Shown: piece after piece, positions 57,841 through 62,988 of the stretch
Numbering within the stretch: position 1 is the first letter of the stretch
Layout of the letters: each line of letters starts with the position of its first letter
Assembly (NCBI RefSeq): GCF_009664855.1
Contig: NZ_CP045928.1
Span: 5,178,331-5,242,330 of the forward strand
DNA from: Flavobacterium sp. SLB02
Lineage (GTDB): Bacteria > Bacteroidota > Bacteroidia > Flavobacteriales > Flavobacteriaceae
Reading direction: 5' to 3'
Length of the DNA: 64,000 nt
Notes under the pieces: model-generated
The model's input: the letters and a program-made list of their open reading frames with translations, nothing else
Database searches by the model: none
Told to the model about the DNA's origin: nothing
Program-made: the position numbers and the translations under genes

Positions 57841-58827
57841 TTATTTAACCTGAGCTTTGAAAAGCTGGTTACGATAAAACTTTAGAAACAAATGAATTAA
57901 AACGAAAATAAAAATGAATAAAAATGGCAATAAAAGTTTAAGATTTCCATTTGTAATTTTAGCGCTATGTATATTTAAAGTTGAATTTATGTCCTTAATT
58001 GCTTTATCATAATTAATAAGCTTTAGCCTGTATTTACCCTGATCGATTATTAAATATTGTTTTGTTTTAATAATATCGTTAAGCTGAGTGTTTTCATTAT
58101 AGTAAATCAGCTTATCGTTTTTTGATCCATTTTTTACAGTATTAGAAAAGCCATTTAAAACCTGGTCAATTTGAGCAATAATAGTATCATTTTGAATTAT
58201 CTGCTGTTCCAGATTTTTATATCCAATTTTTTGAAGCGTCTTAAAATATTCAGAGCTGTTTAAGTATTTTAATAATGGCTCAACGATATCTTTTTCGTTC
58301 GTAATTTTGTCGGTTATAAAAGATATTGAATGAAAAGTATAGTTTTTACTTGTGATATTATCTTCTAACACTTTTTTGACCTCGCCAACCTCAGCCATTA
58401 ATTTAATCAGCTCAAAATTCTGTTCTTTGTCTTCAATAAACTTATAAACATCGGCAATGGGCTTGGTCTCGATTTTTTTTATTGATTTTGGATTTTGAAT
58501 ACCAACTTCATTTTTCAAGAAAGCCGTGTCTCCCGCAATAATTTTAGATTCAATCAAATTTATTTTAGAATAAAGATAATCAACGCTTCCAAAATTTGGA
58601 GTTACAATAATCTGATTTTCAAATGTTTTTTTATTTGAATCTAAATACCAGCCAATACCAAACCCTACGATTACTAAAATTAAAACAATAATCCATTTGC
58701 GGACAAAGAAATGAATAGACTGAAAAATAATGGAATTAATTCTTTCGAAAAAACCACCAATACTTTTTGAAAGCTGAAAAATATCAATCTCCTGTCCTGA
58801 ATTATCCTGCGGTACTTTTGTACTCAT
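57841..58827 (-). CDS. Wzz-like chain-length regulator
   Basis: A 328-residue protein with two membrane helices: about 42-65 (VRKWIIVLILVIVGFGIGWYL) and about 298-318 (LKLLLPFLFIFIFVLIHLFL). The region between is periplasmic and helical. This two-helix plan with a large periplasmic loop matches Wzz/polysaccharide co-polymerases, which set chain length. No tyrosine-kinase domain is attached. It sits 22 bp before the flippase ATG in the Wzx/Wzy operon. Sequence identity to known Wzz could not be checked. Confidence 0.75.
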   Translation of the reverse strand: MSTKVPQDNSGQEIDIFQLSKSIGGFFERINSIIFQSIHFFVRKWIIVLILVIVGFGIGWYLDSNKKTFENQIIVTPNFGSVDYLYSKINLIESKIIAGDTAFLKNEVGIQNPKSIKKIETKPIADVYKFIEDKEQNFELIKLMAEVGEVKKVLEDNITSKNYTFHSISFITDKITNEKDIVEPLLKYLNSSEYFKTLQKIGYKNLEQQIIQNDTIIAQIDQVLNGFSNTVKNGSKNDKLIYYNENTQLNDIIKTKQYLIIDQGKYRLKLINYDKAIKDINSTLNIHSAKITNGNLKLLLPFLFIFIFVLIHLFLKFYRNQLFKAQVK

Positions 58828-58836
58828 TTATTATTT

Positions 58837-60516
58837 TTATTTTACGTTGAAAATTTGTTCCAAAATTTTAATAGTGATCAAATACGTTGGTTTTACACCC
58901 GTTGTTCCTAATCCGCCAGAAGCTAATGTGCTTCCGGTTTCTAGAGGATTATCTGAGGCATAATACGCATAACGAACTTTGATATCGTGCGGAACACTTT
59001 TTCTGATTTTTGATGCCGATTGAATGGCTTTCTGGTAATAAGATCCTTCCATTTCAAGACCAATTACTCCCCAGGTCGATTCGTGAAAGAATTTCAGTAA
59101 ATCTCTGTTTTGTAACGATGTTCCTAATACGGTAACCATAGCTCCTTCAAAAACTGCAATATCGTTTCCTTCAAACATGGCACCTGTTAATTCATTTTCG
59201 AAGAAATAATTATCTGCAGTTCCTTCGTTTATATGTGCTGTAGGGATCATGATATCACCTTTTCCGCCTTCAAGGATTCCCGCTTTCCCCATTATCGAAA
59301 CCGATTTTACATTTAGTAAAGTTTCTTTTTTATATGGTTTTAAAAGTTCATCGATTGTTTCGTAAGCCTGCTCGCCAAAGGCATAATCCATTACAATAAT
59401 AACGGGAGCCGCATCGTCAACAACTGTTTTTGGAAATGCTGTTTTTGCCCAGTCAATTTTTGCAGTATCAAAAATCTGAACGTCGATATTCGTTCCTGAA
59501 CTATCAGGTAACGAAATCATACCATTTTTTAAGGCCAATTCTTCGACAATACTTCTGGTTTCTTTTGCGCCTGATTTGCTTAATTCTTCATAAATATAAA
59601 AGTCAGACTTGTCCTTGAATTTTGTTTTCAACAACGGTGTTGCAAAAATAGAATTCATAACACTATGCATATTGGCACTTATTACGTGTATAGGACGCTT
59701 TAAAAGATTGTTTGCCTTAAGAACCTCCTTGATATTGGTAGCCCAGATTTCACCGTGAATATGGTGTCCTAAACGCTCTCTTAATACAGGACTAAAAGTT
59801 ATCGTTCTTTTATTATTTTCGATTACTTCTTCGATTGCTAATTTTCCTAACCAATAAATTACATGCAGGAAACGATCCGGGGCATTTTCTGAACCAAAAG
59901 CATCATAAATATCCAAAACCTCTTCGAAAGTTCTTGCTAAAATGTTGGCAACATGCGAAATTGCTTTTTCTTTTTCTATTTGAGAAAGCTTTTTGGTTTG
60001 TAAAACTGCTTGCTCTAATTTTAACCAATCGCGAGACACTTCTCCTCCATCATCTAATAAAACCCTGTTTTTGATTTTATGAGATTCTATGAAAATAAAT
60101 GTCAAATGCGTCAGGATATCATAAATATCTGATCGCCCGCGAGTGATTTCAACATTCATTTGTTCCTCATCGATTCTGTAACAATTTCTTCTTCTTTTTG
60201 GAGGAACAATTGCCTGAAAATGCGATTTAGAATATCCTTCATCGGATGTTAAATTGATGAATCTACACTGCTCAATTCCTATTGGTAAACGTTCTATAAC
60301 GTACAAAAGCCCGTTTAGTTCTACTTTTTCTTCGCCTATGTTTCCGTAAATTTCCGGACGTAATGCTAGTAATGATTCGCGTAAACTATCACCCGAAACT
60401 CCCATTGGTTTATAAAAACCGCGGTTGAATAAGTGACGCATTGTAATGTACATTTTTTCGATTGCTGCAGATGATTCCTGCGCTCTTGATCTTAATATAT
60501 GTTTGGTTTCTTTCAT
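58837..60516 (-). CDS. DUF6909-like protein with phosphorylase-like C-terminal half
   Basis: A 559-residue cytosolic protein. The N-terminal half (about 1-290) is helical with a conserved PPKRRRNCYRIDEEQMNVEI segment and no known fold. The C-terminal half resembles nucleoside phosphorylases: GKAGILEGGKGDIMIPTAHINEGT (410-433) and GLEMEGSYY (486-494), the latter like the MEG/EMES motif that binds ribose. I match it from memory to DUF6909. A nucleoside- or sugar-phosphorolysis activity is only a hypothesis. It stands 9 bp before the Wzz-like gene, so it may feed or regulate polysaccharide synthesis. Confidence 0.72.
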   Translation of the reverse strand: MKETKHILRSRAQESSAAIEKMYITMRHLFNRGFYKPMGVSGDSLRESLLALRPEIYGNIGEEKVELNGLLYVIERLPIGIEQCRFINLTSDEGYSKSHFQAIVPPKRRRNCYRIDEEQMNVEITRGRSDIYDILTHLTFIFIESHKIKNRVLLDDGGEVSRDWLKLEQAVLQTKKLSQIEKEKAISHVANILARTFEEVLDIYDAFGSENAPDRFLHVIYWLGKLAIEEVIENNKRTITFSPVLRERLGHHIHGEIWATNIKEVLKANNLLKRPIHVISANMHSVMNSIFATPLLKTKFKDKSDFYIYEELSKSGAKETRSIVEELALKNGMISLPDSSGTNIDVQIFDTAKIDWAKTAFPKTVVDDAAPVIIVMDYAFGEQAYETIDELLKPYKKETLLNVKSVSIMGKAGILEGGKGDIMIPTAHINEGTADNYFFENELTGAMFEGNDIAVFEGAMVTVLGTSLQNRDLLKFFHESTWGVIGLEMEGSYYQKAIQSASKIRKSVPHDIKVRYAYYASDNPLETGSTLASGGLGTTGVKPTYLITIKILEQIFNVK

Positions 60517-60631: not shown

Positions 60632-60982
60632 TCAAATTGTTTTTAATTTATAATCATCAAAATTAACTTCTACTTTTTGAAAATTTTGATCTTTTAATAA
60701 TATTAAATTTATTTTGTTCAGGCATTCCTGGTTGTCTTCTGACATTATAAATGCGAGGTCCCAAATGTCTTTTGAAATAGAGAACGAACCAATGTCTGAA
60801 TTGACATCTAATAGATATTCATCATTCATCCAAAGCTCATTAATTTTAACAACTTTTGGGTTTATTTCTATTATTGAATCAAAAAAGTCTGGAAAAAAAT
60901 CTTCATTTTCAGCACCACTAAATATCTCAATTAACAATTTTTGAGATTGATATCCTGGTCTTAAATGATATTTATACTTCAT
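60632..60982 (-). CDS. Hypothetical 116-residue protein
   Basis: An acidic, Asn/Asp/Ile-rich protein with no signal peptide, membrane helix or known motif. Composition (AT-richer than its neighbours) and its place between two conserved genes, just 9 bp after the GH3 stop, suggest a recently acquired insertion. Size and acidity resemble small immunity-type proteins, but no toxin lies beside it, so this is speculation. Confidence 0.55.
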   Translation of the reverse strand: MKYKYHLRPGYQSQKLLIEIFSGAENEDFFPDFFDSIIEINPKVVKINELWMNDEYLLDVNSDIGSFSISKDIWDLAFIMSEDNQECLNKINLILLKDQNFQKVEVNFDDYKLKTI

Positions 60983-60991
60983 AAACTTTTT

Positions 60992-62476
60992 CTACTTCAA
61001 ATTATCCGCAATATCTCTATTATTAGACAATCTCGGAATTTTATTCTGTCCGCCTAATTTTCCTTGCGATTTCATATAATCCTGAAATCCGTTTTTCGAA
61101 ACTTTTGTTACTACCACTTTTCTTAAAACATTTCCCGTGATCAGATCATCATAATAAATGTTTTGTTTTCGCATCGAATCGTCAATCGCTTCACCAAAGG
61201 CTTCTATGTTTTCCGGTTCGTTTTCAAATTCTATAAGCCATTCGTGATACGGCAATCCGCTTGACGGGTTTATTTGAGGCGCAACAGTAAATTCATTAAT
61301 TACAATTTTGGTTCCTTCTGTGGCTTCTTTCATTGCTTTTTCGACTTCGTTGGCAATAACGTGTTCACCAAAAGCAGAAATGTAATGTTTAATTCTGCCC
61401 GAAACGATTACTCTGTGTGGAAATAACGAGGTAAACTGTACCGTGTCACCAATATTATATCGCCAAAGTCCGGCATTCGTAGAAACGATCAAAGCATAAT
61501 TTACGCCAATTTCCACCTCACCAACTGTATAGCTTTTTGGATTTTCTGAAAAGAATTCATCAGCTTTTATAAACTCATAGAAAATTCCTGAATTCAGTAA
61601 CAAAAGCATACCTTTTTGTTTTTGAGAATCCTGATAAGCAAAAAATCCTTCAGAAGCAGGAAACAACTCAATGCTGTCTACTTTTCGGCCAATCATTTTT
61701 TCGAATTTGGCGCGGTAAGGTTCGTAATTCACTCCTCCGTAAATAAATAAGTTGAAGTTCTTGAATAATTCTCCTATTTTCTTCCCGCCGCTTTTTTCCT
61801 GTAATCGCTCAAAATACATTTGTACCCAGGACGGAATCCCAGAAATTATGGTCATATCCTGATCAATGGTTTCCTCTACAATAGCGCTTACTTTGGTATC
61901 CCAATCCTCGATACAATTGGTCTCCCAGGATGGCATTCTGTTTTTTTGAAGATATTTAGGTACAAAATGAGCTCCAATTCCGGATAATCTTCCAAATTTG
62001 ATTCCGTATTTTTCAATTAAAATTGGACTTCCCTGGAGGAAAATCATTTTTCCATCAACAAAATCGGCATTTCCGGTTTCGTATATATAATGCAGGATTG
62101 CATTTCGCGAAGCTTCAATATGATACGGCATTGATTCTTTGGTCAACGGAATATATTTTGCTCCTGAGGTTGTTCCAGAAGTTTTGGCAAAATAGAGTGG
62201 TTTCCCTTTCCAGAGAATATTTTTTTCTCCCATTCGAACTTTGTCGATGTAGGGTTTTAAATCTTCGTAATCACGAATAGGGACACGTTTTCTGAAATCA
62301 TGAACCGACTTTATTTTATCAAAATGATGATCTTTACCAAACTGGGTTTCTTTGGCACTATTTATTAAATTCTTAAATACTGCTTGTTGCGTTTCGACCG
62401 GCTTATTGGCCCAAGCCTGTGTTTTATAGTATATTTTCGTGGCAAATAATTTTGCAGCTACTGATTTAATCGACAT
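60992..62476 (-). CDS. GH3 auxin-responsive promoter family acyl-adenylating protein
   Basis: A 494-residue protein of the GH3/ANL superfamily. The phosphate-binding loop is AKTSGTTSGAKYIPLT and the acceptor region LFPASEGFFAYQD. The C-terminal hinge has VSGRIKHYISAFGEHVIANEVEKAM. In plants GH3 enzymes conjugate acyl acids with amino acids; bacterial members have unknown substrates and are very common in Bacteroidota. Full length. It overlaps nothing and is 11 bp downstream of the coiled-coil membrane gene. Confidence 0.9.
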   Translation of the reverse strand: MSIKSVAAKLFATKIYYKTQAWANKPVETQQAVFKNLINSAKETQFGKDHHFDKIKSVHDFRKRVPIRDYEDLKPYIDKVRMGEKNILWKGKPLYFAKTSGTTSGAKYIPLTKESMPYHIEASRNAILHYIYETGNADFVDGKMIFLQGSPILIEKYGIKFGRLSGIGAHFVPKYLQKNRMPSWETNCIEDWDTKVSAIVEETIDQDMTIISGIPSWVQMYFERLQEKSGGKKIGELFKNFNLFIYGGVNYEPYRAKFEKMIGRKVDSIELFPASEGFFAYQDSQKQKGMLLLLNSGIFYEFIKADEFFSENPKSYTVGEVEIGVNYALIVSTNAGLWRYNIGDTVQFTSLFPHRVIVSGRIKHYISAFGEHVIANEVEKAMKEATEGTKIVINEFTVAPQINPSSGLPYHEWLIEFENEPENIEAFGEAIDDSMRKQNIYYDDLITGNVLRKVVVTKVSKNGFQDYMKSQGKLGGQNKIPRLSNNRDIADNLK

Positions 62477-62487
62477 TTGTTATGGTA

Positions 62488-62988
62488 TTATTTCTTGTCA
62501 CTTTTGTTTTTACTTCGGTTTTTTTCACCCGGCTCCTTCTCCATCTTTGCCACTTCTTCTCTTAACTTAATTTCTTCTTCAGAGGCTTTCATATTTACTT
62601 CTGAATGTTCATCAGTTTCTGCTATAATAGAATCTTTATTGAATTTTGCATACTCTAATTCACCTCTCAAAACTTTCTGAATTCCTCTTATATAGGCTTC
62701 ATTTTTCTTTAAAGCGGTTTCTAGCGAATCTGATTTAATCGCCAGTTCAGTTGCATTTTTTTTTAATTCACTCGAAGAATATCCGGGAATAAATTCACGC
62801 AAAGGCGTAAAAGCAATGATGAAAGTAGTAATTAAAATTAAAAATATTCCTCCTAATGTGAACGTTACAAACACATTCATTAAGTTGAGTTTGAATGAAA
62901 AAATTTCTTCGAAAGTATCTTCATTCAAAATTACCAATCGGTTTTTGATGAATAAATTTTTTCGGAAATTGAATTTTTTTCTGGTCAT
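62488..62988 (-). CDS. Membrane-anchored coiled-coil protein, M23 N-terminal-domain-like
   Basis: A 166-residue protein: basic N-terminus (RKKFNFRKNLFIKNRLVILNEDTFEEIFS), one membrane helix (about 36-62, VFVTFTLGGIFLILITTFIIAF), then a Glu/Lys-rich coiled coil and a charged tail (about 140-166). The N-terminal part looks like the leader of larger Bacteroidota M23 peptidases, but the peptidase domain is missing. It may be an independent scaffold or a truncated relative. It starts the GH3 operon. Confidence 0.7.
   Translation of the reverse strand: MTRKKFNFRKNLFIKNRLVILNEDTFEEIFSFKLNLMNVFVTFTLGGIFLILITTFIIAFTPLREFIPGYSSSELKKNATELAIKSDSLETALKKNEAYIRGIQKVLRGELEYAKFNKDSIIAETDEHSEVNMKASEEEIKLREEVAKMEKEPGEKNRSKNKSDKK

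What the first reader, a model, noticed from the sequence alone, without database searches (positions are those of the whole stretch)
58837..60516. DUF6909-like protein combines an unknown helical half with a nucleoside-phosphorylase-like half
GKAGILEGGKGDIMIP and GLEMEGSYY resemble the base- and ribose-binding elements of the phosphorylase superfamily, while the first 290 residues look novel. It is the first gene before the Wzz-Wzx-Wzy set, 9 bp from the Wzz-like gene.
Basis: partly seen in the sequence, partly recalled or inferred. Interest (0 to 1): 0.5.

Follow-up and report, generated by a model that had tools for sequence, protein, structure and literature searches.

The report
Flavobacterial stand-in for AMP nucleosidase
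This conserved protein of unknown function has a nucleoside-cleaving enzyme domain and is found almost only in bacteria that lack the usual AMP-splitting enzyme, so it probably does that job in Flavobacteria and some of their relatives.

Summary
The gene is real: 559 aa, minus strand, 58837-60516, 9 bp before the Wzz-like gene; DUF6909 (PF21850). The phosphate-site Arg of hexameric-type phosphorylases is Ile/Val here. The capsule idea is weak: polysaccharide neighbours occurred only within Flavobacteriaceae. New: DUF6909 and the Bacteroidota AMP nucleosidase (NF005500) almost never co-occur: both in 0 of 296 sampled genomes of the phylum, 2 of 148 in one order (about 24 expected), 0 of 249 Flavobacteriaceae; nine Flavobacteriaceae with the AMP nucleosidase all lack DUF6909. 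Trimeric PNP shows no such exclusion; a rarer putative nucleosidase (12 genomes) also never co-occurred. Gln469 with Asp522 resembles the pair that lets engineered human PNP use adenosine analogues. Best explanation: a diverged AMP nucleosidase (AMP + water to adenine + ribose 5-phosphate) that displaced the usual one, with an N-terminal domain of undetermined fold conserved as strongly as the catalytic part. Activity is untested, and by profile it is nearer to trimeric PNP than to AMP nucleosidase.

The parts
58837..60516 (-). DUF6909 gene, 559 aa, proposed AMP nucleosidase
   Evidence: ORF; PF21850 E 8.7e-68; single copy in its genome
60082..60486 (-). N-terminal domain, residues 11-145: strongly conserved, fold undetermined; invariant R27 H28 R32 K36 R76 R108 R110 R114 H137
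   Evidence: 52 of 135 columns invariant, mean majority 0.81, equal to residues 371-559; pLDDT under 50 for 1-133
59812..60081 (-). variable helical linker, residues 146-235
   Evidence: 1 of 90 columns invariant; helices with pLDDT mostly 70-90
58843..59763 (-). PNP-superfamily domain, residues 252-558
   Evidence: Foldseek best 7.9e-8; VIA Z 14.7, rmsd 3.2 over 206 residues; AMP nucleosidase 1t8w Z 13.7, rmsd 5.2 over 234
59671..59673 (-). N282 at the end of the first strand (SAN), possible counterpart of Amn N205
   Evidence: invariant in 23 of 23 and 74 of 74 rows; Amn N205 role from PMC9584410; pairing is by eye
59275..59292 (-). MGKAGI, residues 409-414, counterpart of G[KH]xGGL of AMP nucleosidases; Ile408 where hexameric-type phosphorylases have Arg
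59206..59226 (-). EGTADNY, residues 431-437, resembles EGTSNDY of Bacteroidota AMP nucleosidase
59107..59124 (-). GTSLQN, residues 465-470; Gln469 aligns with the Glu of GPNLET in trimeric PNP (Glu201 of human PNP)
   Evidence: hhalign alignment
59044..59061 (-). GLEMEG, residues 486-491, ribose-site Met-Glu
   Evidence: invariant
58942..58962 (-). YASDNPL, residues 519-525, catalytic/base-site Asp522
   Evidence: all seven invariant in A1; SDxP[LM] in 27 of 29 AMN and 0 of 29 other PNP-family proteins

Best explanation
DUF6909 is a diverged nucleotide N-glycosidase of the PNP superfamily. It most likely hydrolyses AMP to adenine and ribose 5-phosphate and replaces the ordinary AMP nucleosidase (Amn/NF005500) in Flavobacteriales and several other Bacteroidota lineages. 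Supported by the data (the fold by a model): PNP fold of residues 252-558, conserved ribose and base residues, near-exclusive distribution with the known enzyme. Inferred: water rather than orthophosphate attacks, because the phosphate-site Arg is missing; adenine is read by Gln469 and Asp522; the 5'-phosphate is held partly by the conserved N-terminal domain or by residues near H251/H252, perhaps from a neighbouring subunit as H188/Y189 do in Amn; the N-terminal domain may also sense nucleotide or phosphate.
For: Fold: AF2 model, Foldseek 7.9e-8 to PNPs and MTAN, VIA Z 14.7; E. coli AMP nucleosidase Z 13.7 with 234 aligned residues, the most among the 50 rows shown, though at rmsd 5.2. Distribution: phylum sample of 296: DUF6909 43, AMN 120, both 0, expected 17.4, Fisher 2e-11; order sample of 148: 41, 86, both 2, expected 23.8, Fisher 3.5e-17; by genus 2 of 79 with both, 6e-10; families f8, f53 and f54 contain both DUF6909 genera and AMN genera. 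Flavobacteriaceae sample of 249: 214 with DUF6909, 9 with AMN, both 0, Fisher 8e-9. Control: trimeric PNP (TIGR01697) is in 36 of the 41 DUF6909 genomes. Own genome: no TIGR01721 match at E 0.001. Motifs shared with AMN and absent from 29 other PNP-family proteins. Phosphate-site Arg absent as in AMN; present in 8 of 8 UP-like and 1 of 1 DeoD. Gln469/Asp522 resemble the Glu201Gln:Asn243Asp pair that makes human PNP cleave adenosine-based prodrugs (alignment; PMC2799393, passages).
Against: No AMN model of NCBIfam matches the protein. By profile comparison the nearest family is trimeric PNP (score 38.8, 0 of 120 column shuffles reach it), not AMN (24.5, 1 of 120; with long AMN and E. coli Amn 21.5, 8 of 120). 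The shared motifs were chosen after looking at the sequences. Amn's phosphate-binding Arg381 and Lys436 have no clear counterpart. A second PNP-family gene, NF004168 (found in 12 of 148, all below its cut-off), also co-occurs with DUF6909 in 0 of 12 (expected 3.3, P 0.017 by genome, 0.23 by genus), so the exclusion may not be wholly specific to AMN. Two genomes carry both genes, and 23 of 148 and 26 of 249 carry neither. Genomes in the samples are related, so Fisher values overstate independence. AMN and DUF6909 share almost no neighbours. No activity has been measured, and the model is only partly confident (mean pLDDT 61; loops 464-471, 488-498, 523-538 under 50), so the pocket itself was not seen.
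Confidence: 0.56

Rival explanations
1. It is a nucleosidase or phosphorylase for adenosine or another purine nucleoside (or a modified nucleotide), not for AMP; exclusion with AMN arises because both supply adenine.
For: Closest profile is trimeric PNP; no clear counterpart of Amn's Arg381/Lys436; Gln469/Asp522 would suit adenine in either case.
Against: Trimeric PNP co-occurs with it in 36 of 41 genomes; the phosphate-site Arg of hexameric-type phosphorylases is absent; the strong exclusion is with the nucleotide enzyme.
Confidence: 0.23
2. It acts on sugar nucleotides or otherwise serves polysaccharide synthesis, as the neighbours suggest.
For: In Flavobacterium it is followed on the same strand by the Wzz-like gene in 62 of 80 loci, 5-10 bp apart in 58 of these 62; in 10 of 10 further Flavobacteriaceae loci polysaccharide genes lie within five genes.
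Against: In 10 of 10 diverse loci outside Flavobacteriaceae none of the polysaccharide clusters lies within five genes; the fold is a nucleoside-cleaving one.
Confidence: 0.07
3. It is a catalytically dead PNP-fold protein that senses AMP or a related nucleotide and regulates something.
For: Long, strongly conserved N-terminal domain of undetermined fold.
Against: Met-Glu and Ser-Asp are invariant in 23 of 23 and 74 of 74 rows, unlike a pseudo-enzyme.
Confidence: 0.06

Closest known systems
AMP nucleosidase, short Bacteroidota type (NF005500/PRK07115, TIGR01721)
   Same: GK.G.L, EGT..(D/N)Y, Met-Glu and SDxP(L/M) motifs, no phosphate-site Arg; complementary distribution; PNP superfamily by its NCBIfam relatives
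   Different: mostly about 260 aa without the long N-terminal part; no family-model match to DUF6909
E. coli/Klebsiella Amn (1t8r, 1t8w; PMC9584410: abstract, passages and section 6 seen)
   Same: two-part protein: ancillary N-terminal domain plus PNP-fold core; VIA Z 13.7 over 234 residues
   Different: N-terminal domain of Amn is described as more variable, whereas in DUF6909 residues 11-145 are as conserved as the core; Arg381 and Lys436 not matched
Trimeric PNP (TIGR01697)
   Same: best profile match: GDIMI..HIN and GPNLET/GTSLQN regions
   Different: Glu201 is Gln469; its QGRFH segment (phosphate role recalled) aligns with DYAFGEQ; co-occurs rather than excludes
Futalosine hydrolase and MTA/SAH nucleosidase
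   Same: PNP-fold hydrolases, Z 13.6-14.2
   Different: profile score of the MTAN-like set is not above column shuffles (45 of 120 reach it); futalosine hydrolase not tested by profile

Membership tests
DUF6909 (PF21850) | match above the curated cut-off of 27 bits | tested here: met
   229.4 bits, E 8.7e-68
PNP_UDP_1 superfamily (PF01048) | sequence match above cut-off 25.1 bits | tested here: not met
   16.3 bits, E 0.0066; 14 of 23 homologues weakly matched, best 0.0015
PNP superfamily (fold) | PNP fold of the catalytic domain | tested here: met
   Foldseek 7.9e-8, Z 14.7, rmsd 3.2 over 206, on a predicted model
PNP superfamily (fold) | Met-Glu ribose motif and catalytic/base Asp | tested here: met
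   M489 E490 and S521 D522 invariant in 23 of 23 and 74 of 74 rows
Hexameric-type nucleoside phosphorylase (DeoD/UP) | Arg of the phosphate site two residues before the GTxG-type loop (E. coli PNP Arg87, recalled) | tested here: not met
   Ile 22, Val 1 of 23; UP-like 8 of 8 and DeoD 1 of 1 have Arg
Trimeric PNP (TIGR01697) | match to the family model | tested here: not met
   no NCBIfam match of P0001 at E 1; not among the 10 families matched by 23 homologues at E 10; profile similarity by hhalign
AMP nucleosidase NF005500 / TIGR01721 / TIGR01717 | match to the family models | tested here: not met
   no NCBIfam match for P0001 at E 1; not among the 10 families matched by 23 homologues at E 10
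AMP nucleosidase (function) | hydrolysis of AMP to adenine and ribose 5-phosphate | not testable with these tools
   needs an assay
Amn N-terminal domain (AMNp_N, name recalled) | homology of the N-terminal domain | tested here: inconclusive
   no such Pfam match in 23 homologues at E 10; N-terminal model too weak for a fold test
Capsule/polysaccharide gene set | conserved linkage across the family's range | tested here: not met
   linkage in 10 of 10 further Flavobacteriaceae loci, 0 of 10 loci outside

The most novel reading that the evidence does not exclude
DUF6909 is an independently evolved AMP nucleosidase, descended from a trimeric-PNP-like ancestor rather than from Amn. It repeatedly swapped with Amn during Bacteroidota evolution, and its N-terminal domain is a new fold that completes the active site and senses adenylate or phosphate level.
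Probability: 0.25. Interest if true: 0.65.

Novelty: new variant of a known kind. Interest (0 to 1): 0.52.

Why it matters
A protein of unknown function present in 214 of 249 sampled Flavobacteriaceae gets a concrete, one-assay-testable function. If right, it fills an apparent gap in adenylate salvage in this group, shows displacement of AMP nucleosidase by a diverged enzyme within several families of one order, and natively carries a Gln/Asp pair like the one that was engineered into human PNP to make it accept adenosine-type substrates.

Tried and rejected
PDB by sequence gave nothing credible (phmmer best E 0.43; profile best 0.32). PADLOC had no hit; PHROGs only two weak ones (E 0.019 and 0.062). 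Phage records had no match and plasmids only two Persicobacter replicons; a pattern scan of IMG/VR confirmed no relative. Papers: searches for DUF6909, PF21850, 'phosphorylase superfamily' + 'AMP nucleosidase' + 'Flavobacteri', 'AMP nucleosidase' + 'Bacteroid', and 'AMP nucleosidase' + 'Flavobacterium' listed none that by title and start of abstract deals with this family (listings only).

N-terminal domain alone: mean pLDDT 49.5, Foldseek best E 0.6, no match at 0.001. The alignments allowed for AF2 held only close relatives, nearly all Flavobacterium (82-99% identity), so a new fold cannot be claimed. hhalign in global mode gave nothing usable. Putative nucleosidase NF004168 as a distribution control was rare (12 of 148); its 0 of 12 overlap with DUF6909 is told under evidence against. 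TIGR01697 was then used as the commoner control. In-place replacement of AMN by DUF6909 was looked for in 27 loci and not seen; three clusters lay near both kinds. A gene beside AMN was suspected to be adenine phosphoribosyltransferase; from its sequence I judged it is not (by eye). A promoter/terminator scan told nothing.

Rows dropped: the AF2 alignment used 73 of 80 fetched loci plus the window, the N-terminal one 69 of 80 plus the window. A1 uses 22 distinct genes, one of them twice (L099 and L117), chosen from 43 matching genomes. L168, a DeoD-type PNP, was first mixed into the AMN set and removed. The UP-like, MTAN-like and trimeric-PNP sets were labelled from PF01048 hits and a few NCBIfam scans, not each checked; the MTAN-like set has Asn 3, Gln 1, His 1 and no match 1 at the Arg position, and 14 of 15 trimeric PNPs do not fit that pattern at all.

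Full report
What is there. The ORF at 58837-60516 lies on the minus strand, starts with ATG and encodes 559 aa. It ends 9 bp before the Wzz-like gene (57841-58827). The genome is a single 6.36 Mb contig with one copy of the gene; the nearest named homologue found is 99% identical, from Flavobacterium piscis. Pfam places it in DUF6909 (E 8.7e-68) with a sub-threshold match to the phosphorylase superfamily over residues 401-491. The weak match recurs in 14 of 23 homologues, against 2 of 23 for the next families. One gene is in that set twice.

Anatomy. Conservation over the 23 rows gives three main parts. Residues 11-145 are strongly conserved (52 of 135 columns invariant, mean majority 0.81). 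Residues 146-235 are a variable helical linker (1 of 90, 0.55). Residues 371-559 are strongly conserved (86 of 189, 0.81); 236-300 and 301-370 are intermediate (17 of 65 and 7 of 70). The AF2 model from 74 rows is good for much of 255-559, with weak loops at 431-434, 464-471, 488-498 and 523-538, and poor for 1-151. Its C-terminal part matches PNP-superfamily structures: Foldseek best 7.9e-8, 223 matches at or below 0.001, with PNPs, MTA/SAH nucleosidases, a xanthosine phosphorylase and a uridine phosphorylase among the 50 shown; VIA Z up to 14.7 over model residues 252-558, and E. coli AMP nucleosidase at Z 13.7 with 234 residues aligned at rmsd 5.2. Rows within one Z unit are tied, so the fold alone does not choose a subfamily. 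The N-terminal domain modelled alone stayed poor (mean pLDDT 49.5) and its search returned noise.

Active site. The PNP-superfamily signatures are invariant in 23 of 23 and 74 of 74 rows: M489-E490 and S521-D522. In Klebsiella Amn the residues for base and sugar are N205, W383, M404, E405 and D428, with H188 and Y189 of the neighbouring chain and R381 and K436 for the phosphate (PMC9584410, passages); E. coli Amn has the same residues at these numbers. By eye, N205 may correspond to the invariant N282 and H188/Y189 to H251/H252 (H251 is 21 of 23, H252 23 of 23); R381 and K436 have no clear counterpart. The position that is Arg in 8 of 8 UP-like and 1 of 1 DeoD sequences is Phe, Met or Leu in 29 of 29 AMP nucleosidases and Ile or Val in 23 of 23 DUF6909 rows, which favours attack by water over attack by phosphate. 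This test does not apply to trimeric PNPs (14 of 15 do not fit the pattern); their QGRFH segment (phosphate role recalled) aligns with DYAFGEQ here. In the same alignment GTSLQN matches GPNLET, putting Gln469 at human Glu201 (human numbering by correspondence, recalled). Human PNP with Glu201Gln:Asn243Asp cleaves adenosine-based prodrugs that the wild type does not use (PMC2799393, passages). DUF6909 has Gln469, and Asp522 at the place of Asn243. The Asp522 pairing rests on the superfamily Ser-Asp motif and is not inside the confident alignment; the Bacteroidota trimeric PNPs looked at mostly have Asp at that place where the pattern found it, but keep Glu at 201.

Which subfamily. Three motifs are shared with AMP nucleosidases and absent from 29 other PNP-family proteins (8 UP-like, 6 MTAN-like, 15 trimeric PNP): SDxP[LM] in 27 of 29 AMN and 23 of 23 DUF6909; G[KH]xG[GI]L in 24 of 29 and 23 of 23; EGTxx[DN]Y in 14 of 29 and 21 of 23. 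I chose these motifs after seeing the sequences. The unbiased comparison goes the other way: hhalign against trimeric PNP scores 38.8, above all 120 column shuffles, while short AMN scores 24.5 (1 of 120 shuffles reach it), all AMN with E. coli Amn 21.5 (8 of 120), long AMN 16.5 (47), UP-like 18.5 (23) and MTAN-like 15.8 (45). So the catalytic domain is a separate branch whose nearest known profile is trimeric PNP, with AMN-like details. It is not a member of any AMN family model.

Distribution. Three samples were searched with both families. The sample sizes agree and the same handles return within each set of calls, so I treat the draws as identical. Phylum, 296 genomes: DUF6909 in 43, AMN model NF005500 at E 1e-30 or better in 120 (79 over its cut-off), both in 0, expected 17.4. 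Order of G111, 148 genomes: 41 and 86 (84 over the cut-off), both in 2 (G536, G622), neither in 23, expected both 23.8; by genus 24 and 47 of 79, both in 2. Three families of that order (f8, f53, f54) contain DUF6909 genera and AMN genera, and one AMN family (f10) has a single genome with both; in the phylum sample family f5 is mixed as well. Flavobacteriaceae, 249 genomes: 214 with DUF6909, 9 with AMN, both in 0. Five of the 9 stand's list of genomes without a match and four are missing from its list of 214 matches; 26 genomes have neither. Fisher values are 2e-11, 3.5e-17 (6e-10 by genus) and 8e-9; they ignore kinship, so the within-family alternation is the better argument. Controls in the order sample: trimeric PNP (TIGR01697) is in 36 of 41 DUF6909 genomes and 54 of the 107 others, so exclusion is not a property of PNP-family genes at large; but NF004168, found in only 12 genomes and always below its cut-off, overlaps DUF6909 in 0 of 12 (expected 3.3; P 0.017 by genome, 0.23 by genus). 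The window's own genome has DUF6909 together with a relative of NF004168 (87.5 bits, below its cut-off), so that pair is not exclusive in general. That genome has two other phosphorylase-superfamily genes over the cut-off, neither matched by an AMP nucleosidase model at E 0.001, and no TIGR01721 match at E 0.001. Fourteen named control genomes, one of them a Bacteroides, have no DUF6909; other phyla were not surveyed.

Neighbours. In 80 loci, nearly all Flavobacterium, the GH3-type gene lies within five genes in 76 and the Wzz-like gene in 62; the next gene is on the same strand in 80 of 80, and is the Wzz-like gene in 62, at 5-10 bp in 58 of these. In 10 of 10 loci from other Flavobacteriaceae or a more distant Flavobacterium, the Wzz-like gene, rml genes or related clusters lie within five genes. 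In 10 of 10 diverse loci outside the family none of 13 clusters seen in the polysaccharide regions does; neighbours there include MsrA, type III glutamine synthetase, an M1 peptidase and a GH65 enzyme. The capsule link is thus a feature of one family and may be no more than the edge position of a housekeeping gene beside a variable locus. AMN and DUF6909 share almost no neighbours, so no swap in place was seen.

Reading. The simplest account is displacement: DUF6909 does the job of AMP nucleosidase where that enzyme is missing. The fold, the lost phosphate-site Arg and the adenine-type base residues fit; the weak profile link to AMN and the missing Arg381/Lys436 counterparts are against a simple Amn descendant and leave a nucleoside-level activity possible. 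The long conserved N-terminal domain is the most open part: it is conserved like a catalytic element, unlike the more variable N-terminal domain of Amn, and has nine invariant Arg/Lys/His between residues 27 and 137, which would suit binding of a phosphate group. That last step is inference.

Noticed in passing
window 60992-62476 (-): GH3-type ligase near DUF6909 in 76 of 80 loci; scores 397.6 bits against lyso-ornithine lipid synthetase OlsH (cut-off 620), so a relative of possibly different substrate.
   Followed up: partly
window 62488-62988 (-): 166-aa protein that clusters with a 287-aa M23 peptidase in L112; no M23 match is found for the window copy, so the peptidase part seems lost here.
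   Followed up: partly
window 60632-60982 (-): 116-aa ORF without Pfam match between the GH3 gene and DUF6909; in the other loci printed, different genes or none stand at this spot.
   Followed up: no
window 57841-58827 (-): Wzz-like protein has no Pfam match over a cut-off and none to a chain-length determinant; its 359-aa relative in L112 has none at E 1e-5.
   Followed up: no
L213-L218: AMP-nucleosidase-like proteins of 393-463 aa with an extra N-terminal part, below the family cut-off, from other Bacteroidota families.
   Followed up: no
NZ_AP025295.1 and CP012860.1 (Persicobacter): DUF6909 copies (58% identity) on 380- and 859-kb plasmid records, one annotated as hypothetical protein.
   Followed up: no
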